Below are positions 10,880 through 50,974 of a stretch of DNA of 64,000 bases, in pieces. How positions within the stretch are numbered: the first letter of the stretch is position 1; every line of letters begins with the position of its first letter. Under the pieces are notes generated by a model, which worked only from the letters and a program-made list of their open reading frames with translations, ran no database searches and was not told where the DNA came from. The DNA is from Candidatus Endomicrobiellum cubanum (GTDB taxonomy: Bacteria > Elusimicrobiota > Endomicrobiia > Endomicrobiales > Endomicrobiaceae), in assembly GCA_031269735.1 (NCBI GenBank), contig JAISYS010000042.1, positions 62,001 through 126,000 on the forward strand, given 5' to 3'. The position numbers and the translations under genes were made by a program.

Positions 10880-11144
10880 GGTCTTTATCTAATAAATAAT
10901 CTATTGGTAACGTAATCAATGGTAACATTACAAGAGTAAACACTTTTCTTCTGTAATCTTTTAACCTATGCGCTGTGATTAAATTTTTGCTTAAAGGGCT
11001 ATACTCCGCTAACGTAATTTGCTGTGTATTATCTAATAAAATGGCATCTGAATCTCTCCTCTCTTGATATGGCTGGACATCAAAATCCAACTGCACAAAT
11101 TTGTTATTAACTATCCTGTAATAGTCAATAATACCCATTACCAA
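10860..11144 (-). CDS. hypothetical protein
   Basis: Intact ORF with short overlaps to its neighbours. Confidence 0.5.
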   Translation of the reverse strand: MVMGIIDYYRIVNNKFVQLDFDVQPYQERRDSDAILLDNTQQITLAEYSPLSKNLITAHRLKDYRRKVFTLVMLPLITLPIDYLLDKDRDVVFV

Positions 11145-12526
11145 TCTCCTTCTAGCTTCATTAAATACTGCTTAATCTCCCCTAATGATTTTCCATATAA
11201 ATCATTTTTCACCTTGTCGCTAAAATATACACACCTATTTTTAGGGTATACTTTGTCCTCATATTCATTTCTTACAAGTTTTTGATACACACAAGAATGT
11301 AGCGATAATATTAGCCTATCAAATGACATACCAGTTATATCTTGCAGTCTAGCTAACACATCTGAAATAGAATTAGCATGAATAGAAGAAAACACAACTT
11401 TTCCAGTATTCGCAGTATTGATAGCATCCACAGCAGTGTGAGCAGTAATTTCGCCAATATACACAATATCAGGATTTTGACGTAATAGTGAAGTAGTATT
11501 CTCTTTATACTCCTCTTCAGTTTCTACATTTATCTGCTCAATTCCATCAACTAAAATTTCAACAGGACTCTCTATTGAAACTACTTTATATACACTTCTA
11601 TTAACCAATTCTTGCAAAGCAGATAAAATTGTAGTATTCTTACCACTCATCGTTTCTCCAACGAACAACCTTAACCCTTTTTCTTCACTTAACATCTCCT
11701 CTCTTATAAAAGCAACTGTACGGTCATTTATGTTTAACTCCTCTAAGGTTAGAGTTAATACATCATCAGGGAGAATTCGAATAGTAATCGCTCGTCCGTA
11801 ATAAGTTCTATTTAATACTACTCTACCTCTAGTATGTCTATCCAGACTTACAGATAAATATTTTGGCATATTATCAATTTCCGTAACTGGGGAATTCGCT
11901 TTTACTGCTAATAAGTTAGCAATTTCCTCTACATCAGATGTTTCTATCACTCTCCTTGACATAACTTTCTTCTTCCTGCAATTATAATATATTAAAGCGC
12001 CAGACGCTATTGTTGTAATAGTAATATCAGAAGCTTTTAGCTGCAATGCTTCCTCTATTATCAAATCTAACTTGTCCCTAATTGGCACCTTGTTCAAATA
12101 CCAAGGCATACCATAATATCTAATAAATAACTTATTAAAATAGTGTATAGGGATATATGATTTTTCTACCCTCAAATTCATAACATCTTGAATATGCGTA
12201 TCGAATTCAGGCAATACGCCAACATGTATAACTTTCTCCCGTAAATCATACCTTAATGGAACACACTTAAATCCCACAAACTGATTAACAATATCTTTTG
12301 GCACATATTGCACCTCTGGTTTACATAACTCCAAACCATATTCTTTTTGACATAAATCAAACAAATCATCTTCGCTTAACAAGTTTTGTTCATATATCAC
12401 TAGCGCTTCTGGCGTTTTGAATTCACCAGCATTCTTGAACATAAAAAATGTATGCGTTCTTACTATGTCCAAAACCGATGCAGAAAGTACTCCATTCAAA
12501 CTTAACATTCTTTGCATCACTCTCAT
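11138..12526 (-). CDS. GspE/PilB-family secretion/pilus ATPase (divergent)
   Basis: MshEN-like N-terminus; LFVGETMSGKNTTILSAL, VVSIESPVEI, QNPDIVYIGEITAHTAVDAINTANTGKVVFSSIHANS. Confidence 0.8.
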   Translation of the reverse strand: MRVMQRMLSLNGVLSASVLDIVRTHTFFMFKNAGEFKTPEALVIYEQNLLSEDDLFDLCQKEYGLELCKPEVQYVPKDIVNQFVGFKCVPLRYDLREKVIHVGVLPEFDTHIQDVMNLRVEKSYIPIHYFNKLFIRYYGMPWYLNKVPIRDKLDLIIEEALQLKASDITITTIASGALIYYNCRKKKVMSRRVIETSDVEEIANLLAVKANSPVTEIDNMPKYLSVSLDRHTRGRVVLNRTYYGRAITIRILPDDVLTLTLEELNINDRTVAFIREEMLSEEKGLRLFVGETMSGKNTTILSALQELVNRSVYKVVSIESPVEILVDGIEQINVETEEEYKENTTSLLRQNPDIVYIGEITAHTAVDAINTANTGKVVFSSIHANSISDVLARLQDITGMSFDRLILSLHSCVYQKLVRNEYEDKVYPKNRCVYFSDKVKNDLYGKSLGEIKQYLMKLEGDW

Positions 12527-36794: not shown

Positions 36795-38498
36795 TCACAC
36801 ATGCTCTTTCTTTTCTTTTAACTTGAATTTACCAACAGTTTCATCCAATTCAGTAGATTGTCCTGATAATTCCTCAGAAGAGGCAGCTAGCTCTTGCGCA
36901 GTTGCACTGTTTTGCTGTACAACCTGTGATACTTGTTCAATACCAACATTTACATCGATTATTGAAGTATTCTGCTTTACTGAAGACTCTTGTAATTTTT
37001 TAAGTTGTTCAGCACTCTTTTTAGTTGCTTCCACAACTACACGTAACCCATCACTAACTTTACTTACTAAATCATTTCCTTCTTTGACACTAATTAAATT
37101 ATTCTCAGTTAAAAATGCTGTCTCTTTTGAAGCTTCCGCAGATTTTGACGCTAAACTTCTAACCTCATCTGCTACTACAGCAAAACCTTTACCATGTTGA
37201 CCTGCTCTAGCAGCCTCTACTGCTGCATTTAACGCTAAGATATTAGTTTGAAAAGCTATATCATCTATCACTTTTGTAGTCTTAGAAATATTCTTAGACT
37301 TATCATCTATAACATGCATAGCCTCTAACATTTTATTCATTTGCTCCATAACAGTATTTATAATCTGTTCAGCGCTAATAACCTCTTCAAAAGCCTCAGT
37401 TGCCACAACTGCATTCTCTTTAGCCATTTCTTCTATCTCCTGCATAACAGATTGAATTTCTTCAATTGATGCAGACTGTTCTGAGGCTCCTTGTGCCAAA
37501 TTTTGAGAACCTGCAGATATCTGTTGGGAGCCAGTAGCTACTTGCCAGGCAGCCTCATTAATATTAACTAAGGCACCATTTAAGTCACTCTGCATTTTCT
37601 GCAAAGAATTACCTAAAACATCTTCTGACCCCAACGATACCACATCGAATACAAAGTCACCGTTAGAAACCCTAACCAAATATTCACCGATTTCACGTAT
37701 ACGCTCAATCATATGTCTTAAACTGACCATGCTTACACCGAACTCATCTTTATATGCTGAATATCTGATAATATTTTTCCTTAACTCAGTATCAGTTTCC
37801 AATTTACCAGTATCAGCTACTTGGTCTAATAAAGCTTTAATGTAACTTATAGGTCTAACAATCGACCTAGCTAAAAATAACACCAAAAAGATTGAAATTG
37901 CTACTACTACAATAGTAACTACTACTAAGATTGTACTGTGTGTTTTATACAACTTAGCATTATCCTCATTCTGAACTTTAGCTATATCTAAATTTAAGTT
38001 AAAAGAAGCATCTAAGTAATCCGATAAACCAGAACCAGCACTGTCTACTTCTAAAATAGCATCTGCTATTGCAACCTCATCTCTGCTTTCGATAGCATAT
38101 AAAGCGGCTTCTTTTATACTATTAAAAGCAGTATAATCTCTTTCCAAATTTCCATAAATAGATAGCTCTTCCGAATTTGACAAAAGTTCATAATACCTCT
38201 TTAGGGCATCCTCGAAATCTGCTTCTTTTTCTCGCAAACTTTCAATTTCTCCTAATGCAAATTCATTGTCTACATCGTAAAAAAGTGCTATATTATTGAT
38301 ACAAATACGTTGCACTCCTAATCTATCGTACATTATAGACAGATAATCTAAGGACACCACATTCTCTGCATACATCACATTGTTCTCAGTTTGTAATTCA
38401 TGCATACTGTATATACCAATTGCACTAATTACTATACTCAACACCATTATGATTATGAAACTTACTAATAACTTTGTTCTAACTTTGAAATTTCTCAT
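36795..38498 (-). CDS. methyl-accepting chemotaxis protein
   Basis: Two TM segments, HAMP, hairpin tip [39 protein letters not shown]; start re-assigned to MRNFKV. Confidence 0.9.
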
Positions 38499-38925
38499 TA
38501 AAATCTCTTTCATGTAAACTTAATAGTACAGAACTAGTAATATCACAAAACTTATTTGGATTATGTTCGTTCTGATGTGCTTCGATATACTTACAAGTAA
38601 TATTTCTACCCTTTATTAACTCAAGTATCAATTTCCAAATATCATAATATTTTACATTCATATTTGACATTTTACTTGAATTAAATCTGTTAAACTGTGT
38701 TACTAATACTTTTGCATCACTATATACAATCAAATCTTGAACATCCCATTTACTGACAGCATGATTTATAGCTTGCCAAATACCTAACAATTCTCCTTCT
38801 GTTAATGATTTCACATGCTCATATTCTCCAGTTATCATATCTAAATAATAAGAGTCTGTAATAAATAACGTAGTTGCGACTGCCAACCCATTTTTAATCC
38901 CACTGTCAGTATAAGCATATATCAT
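38479..38925 (-). CDS. rnhA: RNase HI-like
   Basis: [44 protein letters not shown]. Confidence 0.75.
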
Positions 38926-43385: not shown

Positions 43386-43730
43386 TTAGTTTCTACGAAG
43401 CCTAGCTTGCTCAATTGTTTCCACGTGAGCATTCGCCTTTTTGTTAGCCAGCGAAGCTATTGTTAAGCCCAACTTCTCTTCCAGCTTAACTTTAAGTTGC
43501 TCCATAATACGCTTATTTTCCTCTAAATGACGTTTAATGGCAGCATAAGAATTTACAATAGCTTCCCCTTCTCCACCTGCTGTCTGCGTCTCAGCTTCAT
43601 TCTGTAGAATATTAATATTACGAAGAATAGTTTGACTGTACTCCTCACTTTCTTCATAATAACGATTAACAGCTGTGGAAACGCCTTCCATTATTTCTTT
43701 GCTAAGTGCTTTTTGTCCCTTAAGAGCCAT
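43386..43730 (-). CDS. small helical WXG100/ESAT-6-like candidate
   Basis: 114 aa, two predicted helices around AETQTAGGEGEAIVNSYAAIKRHLEENKRIMEQL; codon-biased; upstream of the EssC-like locus. Confidence 0.45.
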   Translation of the reverse strand: MALKGQKALSKEIMEGVSTAVNRYYEESEEYSQTILRNINILQNEAETQTAGGEGEAIVNSYAAIKRHLEENKRIMEQLKVKLEEKLGLTIASLANKKANAHVETIEQARLRRN

Positions 43731-43750
43731 AATATAATCTCACTCCCTTC

Positions 43751-44056
43751 TTATTCAAACGTGCTTTTGACTGCAGAAGCATCATCGATTTCATCTACAT
43801 GCGTAATATATTCTTGCAAAGCATCATGTATATTCGCATTAGCTTCAGTCAAAATCTGCAATCTAGGAAGCAAACTCTTGAAAAATTCCGCAGTAGAAGA
43901 AAGTGACGCCAAACCTGTAGCCTGCGCAGCCTCATCAATCTTACTTTGCACTTTCATAGTACTAGAATACCATTGGTCAATAACTTCCGTAATCTCAGTT
44001 TGTGCTTTTAGTGTCAACTCCTTGTTGAAAACGGCAACATCGCTCATACAACTCAC
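43751..44056 (-). CDS. small helical WXG100-like candidate, second member
   Basis: 101 aa, all-helical by composition, codon-biased; adjacent to the 114-aa protein. Confidence 0.45.
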   Translation of the reverse strand: MSCMSDVAVFNKELTLKAQTEITEVIDQWYSSTMKVQSKIDEAAQATGLASLSSTAEFFKSLLPRLQILTEANANIHDALQEYITHVDEIDDASAVKSTFE

Positions 44057-44092
44057 CTCTTACATCTAATACAACCTTGCATTGACCATTTA

Positions 44093-44120
44093 TCAATAAT
44101 ATAACGAGGAATATTATTGA
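44093..44120. repeat. 10-bp inverted repeat TCAATAATAT-AACGAGGA-ATATTATTGA
   Basis: Perfect arms overlapping the stop codon of the M23-like gene. Confidence 0.6.
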
Positions 44121-44809
44121 GTGATGCTATAATACATCTCATCGTATGAAATTCTTACATTCTTGCCATTCTCTTCCTTCTTGTAACAAATGAAATCTGT
44201 ATTTATGGTAGAGAAGCCTATAACCTGTCCTTTTCCAATTTCTTGTCCAGCTCTAGGAAAAGACCCTCTATGCACATAAAACTTATCTAATGGTTCCTCT
44301 CTATCCTTACAACAATACCATTTTTTCAAATTAACAAATTGTACAATATATTTTTCTCCTTCACCCGTTGACTCTAAAGACATAGCCATACCATTATCTC
44401 TATATTCAGAAGAATTAGCAGACGTTATTAAAATACAATCGAAGGGAGCAATTAACTCTTTATTATCTTCAGCTTTGAAATCACATTCTTCGTATGCTAA
44501 TCCTTTATAGCTATCTACATATTTATTAACATCTCCCACTTTAGGTTCTATCCATACATATCCCTTTACTCCTACAAATTCTACATTAACGTTACTAGCT
44601 ACGTATGGGATATTATTACAAGAATCTTCCTCAAATATACCATGTTGAAAAACAGCTGTATTCAAATCTCTGTAATCCAAAGCAGATTCTGATTCAACTA
44701 CTTGATAATAATTATCATCAAAAAATAATTCCTCTTTAGGTAACACTAACTCTAAATCATTAAAAACCGCCATTAACGCTGCTAGAGCTAAACTCAAAAG
44801 TTTTGACAT
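44114..44809 (-). CDS. M23/LytM-like (lysostaphin-fold) domain protein with N-terminal signal/anchor
   Basis: Hydrophobic N-terminus; LIAPFDCILITSANSSE..., YIVQFVNLKKWYC, VHRGSFPRAGQEIGKGQVIGFS. Confidence 0.5.
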   Translation of the reverse strand: MSKLLSLALAALMAVFNDLELVLPKEELFFDDNYYQVVESESALDYRDLNTAVFQHGIFEEDSCNNIPYVASNVNVEFVGVKGYVWIEPKVGDVNKYVDSYKGLAYEECDFKAEDNKELIAPFDCILITSANSSEYRDNGMAMSLESTGEGEKYIVQFVNLKKWYCCKDREEPLDKFYVHRGSFPRAGQEIGKGQVIGFSTINTDFICYKKEENGKNVRISYDEMYYSITQ

Positions 44810-44822
44810 TTTCCTTTCCTTT

Positions 44823-44856
44823 CTTTTTATATGAAATGAAAGTCAAATTTTTTTCT
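44823..44856 (-). promoter_or_regulatory. recurrent 34-bp motif, copy C (candidate promoter)
   Basis: Minus strand AGAAAAAAATTTGACTTTCATTTCATATAAAAAG. Confidence 0.65.
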
Positions 44857-44863
44857 CAAATTA

Positions 44864-44998
44864 CTAAAACCAATAAACTAGCAAATAGGCTGCAAGTATT
44901 AGCATCACTAGGCTCAATGAGAGTTTGAGCGATAGGTGTATCACTTTGAAAAATAGAAAAACGAATAACAATATAGAAATAACAATAAATAAAGTCAA
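44864..44998 (-). CDS. small hydrophobic protein (44 aa, likely two TM segments)
   Basis: Manual translation from TTG: LTLFIVISILLFVFLFFKVIHLSLKLSLSLVMLILAAYLLVYWF; AAGGA upstream. Confidence 0.4.
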   Translation of the reverse strand: MTLFIVISILLFVFLFFKVIHLSLKLSLSLVMLILAAYLLVYWF

Positions 44999-45011
44999 AA
45001 CTCACACATCC

Positions 45012-45410
45012 TTAATAATATACACATCTTAAATATCCAGTTGTCTCTAATGATGAAATAAACCCAATAGCTTTATTTTTATATAAAACTTTTATCCCTG
45101 ATAAACCACGTCTAATTACATGTTTATTCTTGACATCTATATAAAAATAATCACCATCATTTTTTATAACTTCTGCAACTTCATCTTCAAAAGTGACTAT
45201 TGACCCTATTGCTATAACATTAGGTTGATATTTTTCATTTATATAAACAGCTATGTCTTTTTGTACATCTTTATGAATTAGCTTATACCTACTAAAAGAA
45301 TCTTCTGAAATATGGGCTACTGTAATCATAATCCTTGAATTATTAATTTCACTCCCTACTCCTGCACCTGTAAGTATAAGACATAAGAATATAGGAAATA
45401 AAGCCTTCAC
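45012..45410 (-). CDS. hypothetical exported protein
   Basis: Signal-like N-terminus; overlaps the EssC-like gene end. Confidence 0.55.
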   Translation of the reverse strand: MKALFPIFLCLILTGAGVGSEINNSRIMITVAHISEDSFSRYKLIHKDVQKDIAVYINEKYQPNVIAIGSIVTFEDEVAEVIKNDGDYFYIDVKNKHVIRRGLSGIKVLYKNKAIGFISSLETTGYLRCVYY

Positions 45411-48400
45411 AAAACAATCTCTCTCCCTTCTAATGTTCTTGTAAATTCATGCTGATATATTTTGAATTTATATTGAGTAGACCCATATGCATAAATAGCA
45501 AAACCTAAACTTTCTGGTAATTTAGACGCTCTAGCATTATCCAAAAATTTATATGATGTCTGTTCATCACACTTTGCTGCTATTTTATGGTTACATAAAC
45601 TGTGTAAACTACTCGGTATTTCTTTTGCTATTCTACATGCGAATATGAAATGAATATCAACAAGAGAACAAGCTTGTAACACACGCTTAAACCTATCAGT
45701 TAGTTTATAAACTTCTTCACGCCCAAAACCTTTATATTTTTCCCATTGTATGGCAATAAAATAAATAGGGACTAGTTCTTTACTGTTTCTTTCTTTTCTG
45801 GCATCCACCATACCTTCTAACGCCTCAATCCAAGACTCAAACTCAAATGAAGGTAAAGACATAGTAACTAAAGACTCCTCTACTAAATCCTCCACTCCTA
45901 ATAGAATATGTGTGTCTTTATCAGCAGAATGTATAATCATCTTTACATTATCACGCATATTTATATTATCAACAAAAGTCATAACAAGATTCATCAAATC
46001 AACTCTCTCAAATGCATACAGTAATATATGTTCACCATCTTCTATTGTCATATTAAAATTATGAGGCGCTTTATTTAATGAAAAACCAGTTCTCTCTCCT
46101 AATATAAATAATCTAGGTTTAGATACCAACCCATCATTATCTGCATAAAAAGAAAATAAGTCACTTGCGTAGTGTAAATTCTTCTCGTTATAGAATACAG
46201 CTGGTTGATTAGTGTAACCATATTTTATATTTAAGTCGTTTAATATAACTAAAGTATCTTCTAACACTTTATTTGATGCAAATGGAACTCTCCAAAGAGT
46301 AGTAGACGATTGCTCCTCACCACCACTCGTATTAGTATACAAATATCCAAACTTAGTTTTTATAGTACCAGCTTGTGGACTTCCTATTATACTAGTAGAA
46401 ATGTCTTTTGAGCATCTCAAAGCTACCCGTAACGAGAACTGGTCTAGTATATCCTTAGACAAAGTACCTTTCATTGACTGAGAAGTAAACCACATATGGC
46501 ATCCACAAAATCTGGCTAACTTTGATAAAGAAGTTATGGCTGTTGAAATTTTATCGACACTTTTTGGGTCAACTTCTGTGAACATAACTTGAAACTCGTC
46601 TATCAACACCAATATTCTTGGAATACACAAGTGCTCAGTATTAGAATTTATCATCTTATTGTTGTACTCTTCTAACTTCTTAACACCAGTTTTAGCGAAT
46701 ATCTCAGTACGTCTATTCATCTCACTCAATAAATAATCAAATACAGATATTGCGTATTCGCCATCTTTCGTACCTGCAATTATTTTAGTATGAGGTAATC
46801 TGGATAACCCAGTTTCTATATCCACATACATAGCAAACTCAACATTCTTAAAATCAACCATAACTAACTCGAGTTGTCTTGGAGAATATTTACGTAATAA
46901 GGAAGCTAGCATTTGATTTATAGCTGCTGATTTACCCGCTCCAGTTGTGCCAACCATAAGTGCATGAACATTCCCATCTCCTAGAACTATCTCATAACCT
47001 TTAGTTGGGTCACCATTTTCTAACCCGAAATTTAACCCTATACCTTTATTAGTTGAATATGTCCAATATTTTTGTTCTGGTATAAATATATCAGAAAATC
47101 CAGTTACATAATCTATAGAATCTACTTTGCTATTTTCTACAGCATCGATAAAAGTAGATACACAAGAATGTAATAATTCTAAAGTAACAGGTAAGGGATT
47201 ATCAATACCTTGAAATGGTTTATCGTAATAAATAGTATTACTCAAACCAAAATCATGTATAATCCATACGAATACTCCATATCTAGCGGAGTATTCCATA
47301 AATTTTAAGATGCTTTTTGACTCTAACACCTTTTTTATATCTGAGCATAATATTAAAAGTTTATAATCACGTGTTACTTTTCCTACAGCGTAGGCTTGCT
47401 CATTATACTCATTTATATTCTGTTTTCCAATAATCTTTACATTCTCTTGTGCATAAGTTCTTAACTCATCTATTATTGTTTCTATACCTTTTGTTTTTAC
47501 TTCGATGTAATCCGAAATTTTATTATTAAAAAACTCAGAGAAATCAGCACCTAATCTATCTGGGTCATAAATAGTTACTTGTAAACATTTCTCTTTCACA
47601 GCTAATATTGCATTACATAACATTAACTTAACAAAATCTAGCATGCCCTCAGCTTTAACGTTAAATACTATGTTCGCTAGCTGCATAGTAACTTTCAACT
47701 CTATGGCATCTTTATATTTTCCTAATACGAAATCTAAATTAAATATTGGCTTATCATTTATAAAAGTACCAAATGCCTTATTAGCATTTATAATTGAGTT
47801 GATAGTCTCTTCTATATTATTATATCCTTCCGTTATAACATCTAATATAGAAGTGTATAACCTATTAACTATCTCATTAGCTTTATTTATATCCGAGTCT
47901 ATACTTTCAATATTACTGGCTATATATCTCTTTTCTTCTTGAATCGCCAAATCTGGATTTTTCTTTTCTAACTCTACTAAAGTCTCTTTATAACTTTGCT
48001 CAATGTCACTCACATCTAACTCAATAACATCAGGAGTAACAACATATTTATCAAAATTTATATTAAACATAACAGATTGAGCTATACGCAAAGAATCTAA
48101 AGCTTTATTCAATCCCCAGGCAGACTTATACATCCTATAAAACAAATATACCAAAACAAAAGGAGAAAAGATGAATACGCTACAAATAACACCAAACATA
48201 AACATAAATTTATCTTTATTTCCTGTATCATCTATAAAATCCTCCAAAATAGTCATAAATTTAGTATTTTGTCTCTTTTCTAAACTTTTACATCCTTTTA
48301 ACCCAGTATCAATTAATACCTCTAACTCTTGTTTTGAAACATCTTCCGTTATCTTTAAGTCTGATGGGGATACATCGTAAACATCAATCACTTTATCCAA

Positions 48401-48796
48401 TTTATCTTTATACATTAACAATTCTTCATGCTTCTTCACTAAACCTAACACTTCATTATTAGCTTCACGGTTAAGTCGTTCTAATTCTTTGTCATATTCT
48501 AAACGTCTACTATCCATTTTGGTACTAGCATCACATTTAAGTTGTTCTAATGAATTTTCATAATCTATTTTTTCTTTATTAAAATACTCTACTAAAATAT
48601 CATTCAAATTTATAACAAGCGGTGCAGGTTTATTGATTTGCAAGGATTGAAGCATACTTCTTAGTCTGTCTCTTTCTTCAACTAACTGAATTAAATCGTA
48701 ATGTTCGAAATTCTGTAAATAGTATTTTTCATACTTCGTTTTGTTAGATTCTAAATAATTAGATATATGTGTCTGTAATAACTCTTTATAAATCAT
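45407..48796 (-). CDS. EssC/EccC-like FtsK/SpoIIIE-type membrane ATPase
   Basis: TM pair near residue 200; MVGTTGAGKSAAINQML, LELVMVDFKNVEF, ILVLIDEFQVMF, second degenerate FtsK-like module (PRLFILGERTGF ... EDGEHILLYAFERVDLMNLV). Confidence 0.75.
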   Translation of the reverse strand: MIYKELLQTHISNYLESNKTKYEKYYLQNFEHYDLIQLVEERDRLRSMLQSLQINKPAPLVINLNDILVEYFNKEKIDYENSLEQLKCDASTKMDSRRLEYDKELERLNREANNEVLGLVKKHEELLMYKDKLDKVIDVYDVSPSDLKITEDVSKQELEVLIDTGLKGCKSLEKRQNTKFMTILEDFIDDTGNKDKFMFMFGVICSVFIFSPFVLVYLFYRMYKSAWGLNKALDSLRIAQSVMFNINFDKYVVTPDVIELDVSDIEQSYKETLVELEKKNPDLAIQEEKRYIASNIESIDSDINKANEIVNRLYTSILDVITEGYNNIEETINSIINANKAFGTFINDKPIFNLDFVLGKYKDAIELKVTMQLANIVFNVKAEGMLDFVKLMLCNAILAVKEKCLQVTIYDPDRLGADFSEFFNNKISDYIEVKTKGIETIIDELRTYAQENVKIIGKQNINEYNEQAYAVGKVTRDYKLLILCSDIKKVLESKSILKFMEYSARYGVFVWIIHDFGLSNTIYYDKPFQGIDNPLPVTLELLHSCVSTFIDAVENSKVDSIDYVTGFSDIFIPEQKYWTYSTNKGIGLNFGLENGDPTKGYEIVLGDGNVHALMVGTTGAGKSAAINQMLASLLRKYSPRQLELVMVDFKNVEFAMYVDIETGLSRLPHTKIIAGTKDGEYAISVFDYLLSEMNRRTEIFAKTGVKKLEEYNNKMINSNTEHLCIPRILVLIDEFQVMFTEVDPKSVDKISTAITSLSKLARFCGCHMWFTSQSMKGTLSKDILDQFSLRVALRCSKDISTSIIGSPQAGTIKTKFGYLYTNTSGGEEQSSTTLWRVPFASNKVLEDTLVILNDLNIKYGYTNQPAVFYNEKNLHYASDLFSFYADNDGLVSKPRLFILGERTGFSLNKAPHNFNMTIEDGEHILLYAFERVDLMNLVMTFVDNINMRDNVKMIIHSADKDTHILLGVEDLVEESLVTMSLPSFEFESWIEALEGMVDARKERNSKELVPIYFIAIQWEKYKGFGREEVYKLTDRFKRVLQACSLVDIHFIFACRIAKEIPSSLHSLCNHKIAAKCDEQTSYKFLDNARASKLPESLGFAIYAYGSTQYKFKIYQHEFTRTLEGREIVL

Positions 48797-49996: not shown

Positions 49997-50576
49997 AAAC
50001 TAAATCTAATAAGTCTATTATATCGGTGCTATAGCCATTTATATATCCGTTTATAATAAAATTACCGTTATGAACATGTAATATTATCTTATCGTCTCCT
50101 TCTTTTGGCTCAACACTATACGCAGCATTATTTGGTGTAAATATGTTTATTACAAACTTAAATTTCTCTATTATTTTCTTAGTAACAAAATGCTCTCTTT
50201 GTAATACAACATCAAATCGTTGCTCTCTATTTAATTTTTCCTCAACAGGAAACTTTTTTCTAGCTAATGTGTATAAATCATTATAGCTTATTAAATTTGG
50301 ATATTCTTTACCCATATTATCACAATTTGTTCGGATAAAAAAGTAATCTTCCTTTGGTACAGTCAAAATCCACTCTACACCTTTTGGGTTTAGCAAAACT
50401 GCAACTTCATCCGTAACAAAGCACTTAAGCTGTATTTTTCTTATTTCACAAAATGAAAGTAAGTTATTAACCGCTTTTCTTAAATCTAAATGGTATGTCT
50501 CACTTCTATGCTCATAAGACTCCACCTTTGGCAATAGAAGTAAGCCATCGTCTGCATATCCATACATGATTTTCAC
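49935..50576 (-). CDS. hypothetical protein
   Basis: Intact ORF. Confidence 0.5.
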   Translation of the reverse strand: MKIMYGYADDGLLLLPKVESYEHRSETYHLDLRKAVNNLLSFCEIRKIQLKCFVTDEVAVLLNPKGVEWILTVPKEDYFFIRTNCDNMGKEYPNLISYNDLYTLARKKFPVEEKLNREQRFDVVLQREHFVTKKIIEKFKFVINIFTPNNAAYSVEPKEGDDKIILHVHNGNFIINGYINGYSTDIIDLLDLVYANRPLHTWKVENENENILL

Positions 50577-50974
50577 TCCATTCCTAAATAAATGCCATTC
50601 AAATGGTCTAATTCATGAGATATAATTCTTGCTATAATATACTCTGCAATAAAATAAAATAACTCTCCTTTCTCGTTAAAAGCTTTAACTACAAGAGAAG
50701 TAGGTCTAACTTTGTAAACTCTAATACCAGGTCTAGAAATACAAGATTCTTTACATAAACAAAACCTACTTTCTTTTAATAACATTGGATTTATAAATAT
50801 CAAGTCAGGATTACGCAATCTAAATATACGCAAAGGCACACCTAGCTGTATAGCTGATAAACCAATTCCTTTGTTAAATTTTTTCATTTGTATAATTAAA
50901 TCTTTTGGTATGTTTTCTAACTGAACTTCTTTACTTATCAAAGATAAAATAGTTGTATCGGTTATTATACTCAA
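50573..50974 (-). CDS. def: peptide deformylase
   Basis: GIGLSAIQLG, ESCISRPG, ISHELDHLNGI. Confidence 0.85.
   Translation of the reverse strand: MSIITDTTILSLISKEVQLENIPKDLIIQMKKFNKGIGLSAIQLGVPLRIFRLRNPDLIFINPMLLKESRFCLCKESCISRPGIRVYKVRPTSLVVKAFNEKGELFYFIAEYIIARIISHELDHLNGIYLGME

What the first reader, a model, noticed from the sequence alone, without database searches (positions are those of the whole stretch)
43386..48796. Type-VII-secretion-like locus on a virus/plasmid-like replicon
The 1129-aa protein (45407..48796) has an N-terminal coiled coil, a TM region, one intact FtsK/SpoIIIE ATPase (GTTGAGKS, VLIDEF) and a second module with a lost P-loop. That resembles EssC/EccC tandem architecture. 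The same run holds a small exported protein, a tiny two-TM ORF, an M23-like protein and two ~100-aa all-helical codon-biased proteins, one with GGEGEAIVNSY at the helix turn where WXG100 proteins carry W-x-G. No EssB, EsaA or YukD homologue is obvious. The locus could secrete WXG-like proteins, help the element transfer between cells, or be a new membrane DNA/protein pump. Coupling of the small proteins to the ATPase is inferred from proximity.
Basis: partly seen in the sequence, partly recalled or inferred. Interest (0 to 1): 0.75.

Follow-up and report, generated by a model that had tools for sequence, protein, structure and literature searches.

The report
Plasmid-borne EssC-like ATPase with hairpin proteins
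A 156-kb circular plasmid-like element in an unnamed bacterial genome bin carries a probably membrane-anchored motor protein of a little-studied type VII-like secretion family, next to two small proteins that may be its cargo; it is an unusual variant of a known kind, and its export function is untested.

Summary
The 1129-aa protein (45407..48796, -) has a coiled coil, one hydrophobic stretch, and three ATPase-like modules, not two: degenerate D0, active D1, degenerate D2. Structure search ranks EccC/EssC first, ahead of FtsK and the coupling protein TcpA. By sequence it belongs to neither the EssC/EccC nor the FtsK clade. It falls in a family of coiled-coil, single-active-site EssC-like ATPases of Clostridia, Bacteroidales and Planctomycetes, many next to WXG100 proteins, a kind described near CoCoNuT islands (PMC11090510). 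Unlike those, it carries a membrane segment.
The 114-aa protein models as a helical hairpin; EsxA-type folds are among its nearest solved structures, but not significantly, and neither small protein has WxG or detectable WXG100 homology. The M23 and two-TM claims fail.
The contig is a circular 155,735-bp, almost one-stranded plasmid-like element with its own RNA polymerase beta and beta', DNA polymerases, a VirB4-like module and a Tad-like pilus cluster; no terminase, portal or major capsid protein was seen.
Best reading: a T7SS-like exporter of hairpin proteins (0.55). Main rival: coupling ATPase of the element's conjugation machine (0.20). Novelty: new variant of a known kind.

The parts
45407..48796 (-). 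EssC-like FtsK/SpoIIIE-superfamily ATPase, 1129 aa
   Evidence: PF01580 1.6e-25; NCBIfam EccCa 104 bits, cut-off 509; fold search EccC 5e-28; tree
48377..48607 (-). N-terminal long helix / coiled coil (aa 64-140)
   Evidence: AlphaFold2 secondary structure, low confidence
48134..48208 (-). hydrophobic, probably membrane-spanning segment (aa about 197-221)
   Evidence: hydropathy scan
47249..47740 (-). D0, degenerate ATPase-like module (aa 353-516)
   Evidence: AlphaFold2; D0 region alone matches the WXG-associated family profile at E=3e-7, not EssC, FtsK or T4CP profiles
46217..47074 (-). D1, intact FtsK/SpoIIIE ATPase module (aa 575-860)
   Evidence: AlphaFold2, pLDDT about 90 over much of it; PF01580
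46928..46951 (-). Walker A GTTGAGKS (aa 616-623)
   Evidence: G616, G621 and K622 invariant in the 40-sequence alignment
46592..46615 (-). Walker B region ILVLIDEF (aa 728-735)
   Evidence: I728, L729, V730, D733, E734, F735 invariant
45413..46114 (-). D2, degenerate ATPase-like module without P-loop (aa 895-1128)
   Evidence: AlphaFold2; D2 region alone matches the family profile at E=1e-4
45012..45410 (-). 132-aa protein with N-terminal hydrophobic segment (probably exported), start overlaps the ATPase stop
   Evidence: coding-like codon use
44856..45005 (-). 49-aa frame (GTG); more coding-like than the overlapping two-TM frame 44864..44998
   Evidence: weak because short
44114..44809 (-). 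231-aa protein with N-terminal hydrophobic segment; M23 relation not confirmed
   Evidence: coding-like
43751..44056 (-).
   Evidence: codon use 0.20; synonymous score ambiguous; no Pfam match
43386..43730 (-). 114-aa helical hairpin protein, candidate cargo; hinge residues TAGG at aa 50-53
   Evidence: AlphaFold2 pLDDT 77; EsxA-type folds among nearest PDB matches, E about 0.2

Best explanation
The run encodes a reduced, type VII-like export module. The ATPase is thought to form a ring fixed to the membrane by its hydrophobic segment and coiled coil. D1 hydrolyses ATP; the dead modules D0 and D2 serve as scaffold and docking sites. It would export the 101- and 114-aa proteins as a pair, and the two proteins with N-terminal hydrophobic segments (132 and 231 aa) may sit outside the membrane and complete the path. 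On a conjugative-looking plasmid its benefit would be rivalry with other cells or help with mating. Shown: the ATPase's family, its three modules, the intact D1 motifs, the hairpin model of the 114-aa protein, gene order. Inferred: ring, membrane topology, export, cargo identity, pairing, benefit.
For: Nearest relatives are a clade of coiled-coil EssC-like ATPases; 15 of 36 small neighbour proteins chosen from these loci match WXG100 (PF06013, E<=0.05, best 1.4e-7; three of the 36 come from a canonical EssC locus, L107), and 23 of 52 loci have a neighbour with W-x-G/D at a hairpin-like position. The window ATPase aligns with that family over aa 254-1115 (E=5.5e-48), whereas EssC/EccC, FtsK and T4CP profiles align significantly over the active ATPase region only. 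Fold search: EccC/EssC hold ranks 1-7 (5e-28 to 3e-21), FtsK follows at 7e-17, TcpA at 2e-13. The 114-aa model: S. aureus and Geobacillus EsxA hits at Foldseek probability 0.84-0.98, LapD2 TM-score up to 0.65. The literature describes EssC homologues with N-terminal coiled coil, three ATPase domains of which only the central is active, and two WXG100 proteins, one lacking WxG (PMC11090510).
Against: Neither small protein has W-x-G or a WXG100 match; the profile signal does not beat reversed sequences; the Foldseek E-values are about 0.2. The closest relative, L049, has no recognised WXG100 neighbour. No YukD, EssA/B, EsaA or EccB/D/E was recognised (lists partly truncated, ORFs under 120 aa outside the operon not scanned). 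The element is almost all on one strand, so tight gene order is weak evidence of an operon. It also carries a VirB4-like module, for which this is the only FtsK-family ATPase found on the contig.
Confidence: 0.55

Rival explanations
1. The ATPase is the coupling protein (T4CP) of the element's own conjugation apparatus, pumping DNA to the VirB4-like/large-membrane-protein machine; the small helical proteins are accessory or nucleoprotein factors.
For: It is the only PF01580 protein found on C51. C51 has a VirB4-like ATPase, lytic enzymes and very large membrane proteins, in an order resembling a B. velezensis 215-kb plasmid where an 1114-aa FtsK-domain protein sits 1.3 kb past the VirB4-like gene. 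Gram-positive coupling proteins can be FtsK-like (TcpA structures).
Against: The gene lies about 61 kb from the VirB4-like gene. A clade with the T4CP-like plasmid proteins is rejected, though only just (AU p=0.047). TcpA-type proteins match the D1 region only and more weakly. Relatives sit beside WXG100, ThiF and JAB genes; no conjugation genes were recognised there. Apart from the VirB4-like gene, homology to the B. velezensis module is not significant in the four gene pairs compared.
Confidence: 0.2
2. A defence-type ATPase working inside the cell, like the EssC homologues tied to CoCoNuT islands or the FtsK-like parts of SspH/MADS, rather than a secretion motor.
For: PADLOC matches to SspH (1.3e-19) and mad8 (4.6e-13). 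The CoCoNuT paper places coiled-coil EssC homologues in defence islands.
Against: The PADLOC matches cover only the FtsK-type domain. This copy has a membrane segment and neighbours with N-terminal hydrophobic segments, and no McrBC or VWA gene was recognised among the families listed (partly truncated).
Confidence: 0.12
3. A DNA-moving FtsK/SpoIIIE-type pump used for segregation or packaging of the element.
For: D1 is a genuine FtsK/SpoIIIE domain; phage FtsK-like families match it (phrog_1358, 5.8e-38).
Against: A clade with chromosomal FtsK is rejected (AU p=0.014); EccC/EssC folds match better; no terminase, portal or major capsid match seen.
Confidence: 0.08

Closest known systems
Coiled-coil EssC homologues with WXG100 genes near CoCoNuT islands, also reported as stand-alone systems (PMC11090510, citing Anantharaman et al. 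2012)
   Same: N-terminal coiled coil; three ATPase modules with only the central one intact; two small proteins nearby (one modelled here as a hairpin)
   Different: One hydrophobic segment here; no WxG in either small protein; neighbours with N-terminal hydrophobic segments; plasmid-like carrier; no VWA or McrBC gene recognised
T7SS ATPases EccC/EssC (T7SSa, T7SSb, T7SSc-j)
   Same: Best fold match, tandem ATPase modules, small hairpin protein nearby
   Different: No D3, no FHA domains, separate clade (AU p=0.027), NCBIfam scores far below cut-offs, accessory proteins not recognised
TcpA-type conjugation coupling proteins
   Same: FtsK-like motor on a plasmid with VirB4-like genes
   Different: No match to the D0/D2 modules; weaker fold and sequence match; gene far from the VirB4-like module
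Chromosomal FtsK/SpoIIIE
   Same: Intact motor domain
   Different: No match outside the motor region; clade rejected by AU test (p=0.014)

Membership tests
T7SS (EccC/EssC type) | ATPase in the EccC/EssC clade or above the family score cut-off | tested here: not met
   AU p=0.027; EccCa 104 of 509 bits, EssC 65 of 778
T7SS (EccC/EssC type) | C-terminal chain of four ATPase-like domains D0-D3 (PMC11217815) | tested here: not met
   Model shows D0, D1, D2 and ends
T7SS (EccC/EssC type) | Two transmembrane helices before D0 | tested here: inconclusive
   One hydrophobic stretch by hydropathy; model has two short helices there at low confidence
T7SS (EccC/EssC type) | WXG100 protein with W-x-G at the hinge | tested here: not met
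   No PF06013 match, no W-x-G in either sequence; the hairpin fold itself is predicted for the 114-aa protein
T7SS (EccC/EssC type) | EsaB/YukD and EssA/EssB/EsaA or EccB/D/E partners | tested here: inconclusive
   None listed in Pfam/PHROG scans, but lists were truncated and ORFs under 120 aa outside the operon were not scanned
T7SS (EccC/EssC type) | ATPase-dependent export of the hairpin proteins | not testable with these tools
   Needs secretion assays
Coiled-coil EssC-like / WXG100 family | ATPase belongs to the clade | tested here: met
   98/97 and 99/95
Coiled-coil EssC-like / WXG100 family | Homology beyond the motor, over D0-D1-D2 | tested here: met
   hhalign aa 254-1115, E=5.5e-48; D0 3e-7, D2 1e-4
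Coiled-coil EssC-like / WXG100 family | Only the central ATPase module active | tested here: met
   Single Walker A, in D1
Coiled-coil EssC-like / WXG100 family | N-terminal coiled coil | tested here: met
   Long helices at aa 64-140 and 262-326, low to moderate confidence
Coiled-coil EssC-like / WXG100 family | Two WXG100-type proteins encoded alongside | tested here: inconclusive
   Two small proteins, one modelled as a hairpin; homology not shown
Coiled-coil EssC-like / WXG100 family | No transmembrane segment (as reported for CoCoNuT copies; varies in the clade, so not taken as defining) | tested here: not met
   Hydrophobic stretch at aa 198; Pirellula members of the clade also have two
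T4CP (TcpA type) | Groups with conjugative FtsK-like coupling proteins | tested here: not met
   AU p=0.047, borderline; the comparison group is two plasmid proteins assumed to be T4CPs
T4CP (TcpA type) | Gene lies with the conjugation module | tested here: not met
   About 61 kb from the VirB4-like gene on C51
Chromosomal FtsK | Groups with FtsK translocases | tested here: not met
   AU p=0.014

The most novel reading that the evidence does not exclude
A membrane-anchored, three-module EssC-like exporter with cargo lacking WxG, carried by a plasmid that also encodes a VirB4-like conjugation module and its own multisubunit RNA polymerase, acts as a minimal type VII system that opens the envelope or manipulates the partner cell during plasmid transfer.
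Probability: 0.2. Interest if true: 0.75.

Novelty: new variant of a known kind. Interest (0 to 1): 0.5.

Why it matters
T7SS research centres on systems with four ATPase domains and WXG100 cargo in Gram-positive bacteria. This locus belongs to a less-studied sister family found across Clostridia, Bacteroidales and Planctomycetes, and is a copy with a membrane segment. If it exports protein, it would show a much smaller machine than T7SSa/b. Co-location with a VirB4-like module recalls mycobacterial plasmids that carry both a T7SS and a T4SS (PMC4791881), and would make a role for type VII-like export in plasmid transfer directly testable.

Tried and rejected
Relatives in IMG/VR: six scans (ATPase three times, alone and in two alignments; VirB4-like protein; DNA polymerase; RNAP beta) gave none. 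Relatives of the ATPase above chromosomal FtsK in the host's family, class and phylum (up to 341 genomes): none; VirB4-like protein in the order: none. WXG100 homology of the small proteins: the 114-aa ranks first and the 101-aa third of 174 element proteins against a profile of relatives' neighbours, and shuffles rarely match the 114-aa score, but reversed sequences score 6.8 and 10.0 against 8.7 and 5.8 for the real ones, so this signal is rejected. M23 relation of the 231-aa protein: no support. A two-TM mini-gene at 44864..44998: rejected on codon use. The control for the neighbour count is weak, because most control FtsK loci have short flanks.
Full report
WHERE IT IS. The window is bases 62001-126000 of contig C51 in a 1.33-Mb, 60-contig bin. 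C51 has 155,790 bases with a 55-base exact terminal repeat, so it is probably a circular element of 155,735 bp; 167 of 171 ORFs lie on one strand and cover about 95% of it. Its tetranucleotide profile is nearer to the bin than to the other genomes compared, but distinct from it (0.217, against 0.139 within the bin), so the host assignment is uncertain. The element carries RNA polymerase beta and beta' genes, two DNA polymerase A genes, helicase, primase and clamp loader, a VirB4-like ATPase with very large membrane proteins, and a cluster with prepilin-like proteins and a weak TadA match. No terminase, portal or major capsid match was listed in PHROGs scans of ORFs of 120 aa or more outside the operon; the 2477-aa ORF was not scanned and some weaker families were not displayed. 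Apparent 'minor head' and 'tape measure' hits appear together with peptidase and endolysin families and probably reflect those domains. I regard the element as plasmid-like.

THE ATPASE. The 1129-aa protein matches PF01580 (1.6e-25). In NCBIfam the best model is EccCa (104 bits, cut-off 509), then EssC, then FtsK; in the PDB, EccC5 chains lead the phmmer list. A genome-collection scan with an alignment of it and a faecal-contig relative gave 63 loci. A tree of motor domains puts it with L049, a Lachnospiraceae contig (100/99), in a 55-row clade (98/97) apart from chromosomal FtsK, EssC/EccC and plasmid coupling-type proteins. A leaner tree without most long branches agrees (99/95), and AU tests reject grouping with FtsK (0.014), EssC/EccC D1 (0.027) and, barely, T4CP-like proteins (0.047). 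Two cautions: the relatives were fetched with a query that includes this protein, which favours like sequences, and the tested groups were named after the first tree had been seen.

MODULES. Profile comparison with the relatives, window sequence excluded, aligns aa 254-1115 (5.5e-48); the D0 region alone (3e-7) and the D2 region alone (1e-4) match only this family, not the EssC/EccC, FtsK or T4CP profiles. AlphaFold2 with 40 sequences (mean pLDDT 68, pTM 0.55) shows a helical N-terminal third at low confidence, D0 at aa 353-516, D1 at 575-860 with pLDDT near 90 over much of it, and D2 at 895-1128. Foldseek gives EccC/EssC ranks 1-7, FtsK at 7e-17 and TcpA at 2e-13; the long EccC alignments have high rmsd, so relative module placement is unsure. 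A profile of the family aligns with YukB over about 600 positions. One hydrophobic stretch lies at about aa 198; whether it spans once or forms a hairpin is open. Most relatives lack one before the ATPase modules, though Pirellula members have two.

NEIGHBOURS IN RELATIVES. Of 36 small neighbour proteins selected from the loci, 15 match WXG100 at E<=0.05; three of the 36 belong to a canonical EssC locus (L107). Among 64 mid-size neighbours, 9 match ThiF and 9 match JAB. A crude W-x-G/D hairpin test is met by 23 of 52 loci; the control set was too short-flanked to be informative. The usual motif in these proteins is W-x-D. The sister locus L049 splits the protein: coiled coil with a D0-like part in one gene, D1-D2 in another, with a 241-aa helical protein between (my reading).

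THE SMALL PROTEINS. The 114-aa protein models, without an alignment, as two helices hinged at TAGG, and EsxA, LapD2 and HP0062 are among its nearest solved structures, but no match has E below 0.1 and helical hairpins are common. The 101-aa protein was not modelled. Sequence homology to WXG100 is not shown: a profile of the relatives' proteins scores reversed sequences about as high.

INTERPRETATION. I favour a type VII-like exporter (0.55): family, modules and the hairpin model are shown; ring formation, topology, cargo and benefit are inferred. The main rival is a coupling ATPase for the VirB4-like module (0.20), because no other FtsK-family protein was found on the element and a B. velezensis plasmid has an FtsK-domain protein beside a similar VirB4-like gene. 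Against it stand the distance of 61 kb, the tree, the fold ranking and the relatives' neighbourhoods.

KNOWN OR NEW. A 2024 eLife paper describes EssC homologues with N-terminal coiled coil, three ATPase domains of which only the central is active, no transmembrane helices, and two WXG100 genes, and cites earlier work on stand-alone copies (PMC11090510). T7SSc-j ATPases have four C-terminal NTPase domains (PMC11217815), and the same is proposed for S. aureus EssC (PMC9436818). This locus is therefore best described as a variant of the coiled-coil kind with a membrane segment, not a T7SS by the tested criteria. Mycobacterial plasmids that carry both a T7SS and T4SS parts are a precedent for the pairing seen here (PMC4791881).

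Noticed in passing
L027:6209-9535 and L027:10648-14307 (contig C51 132206-140307, outside the window): RNA polymerase beta' (NADFDGDQM present) and beta genes, 1109 and 1220 aa, on a plasmid-like element; beta is about 28% identical to the nearest records of the phage collection.
   Followed up: partly
L025 (C51 39-59 kb): VirB4-like ATPase, glucosaminidases, M23 peptidase and very large membrane proteins, in an order resembling a 215-kb Bacillus velezensis plasmid (L029).
   Followed up: partly
L023:319-11562; window 11138..12526: Prepilin-like small proteins, a GspF-like protein, a TadA-like ATPase, a MinD-like protein and a CpaB-like protein by eye; a separate T2SSE/PilB-like ATPase lies in the window with an altered Walker A.
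   Followed up: partly
L049 (CAMJKC010000068.1): Closest relative of the ATPase, in a split arrangement on an 8.7-kb AT-rich Lachnospiraceae contig with one-stranded genes; may be a piece of a related element.
   Followed up: partly
L051, L064, L087, L093, L110 and others: W-x-D motif instead of W-x-G in many WXG100-like neighbours of this ATPase family.
   Followed up: partly
window 36795..38513; 50573..50974: Probable chemoreceptor (MCP) and peptide deformylase genes on the element.
   Followed up: no
L040 (MN270261.1): A Streptococcus suis phage record with an annotated T7SSb cluster (EsxA, EssB, EssC).
   Followed up: no
C51, several: Five Fic-domain proteins and four PDDEXK-family transposase-type proteins among the scanned ORFs outside the window.
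   Followed up: no
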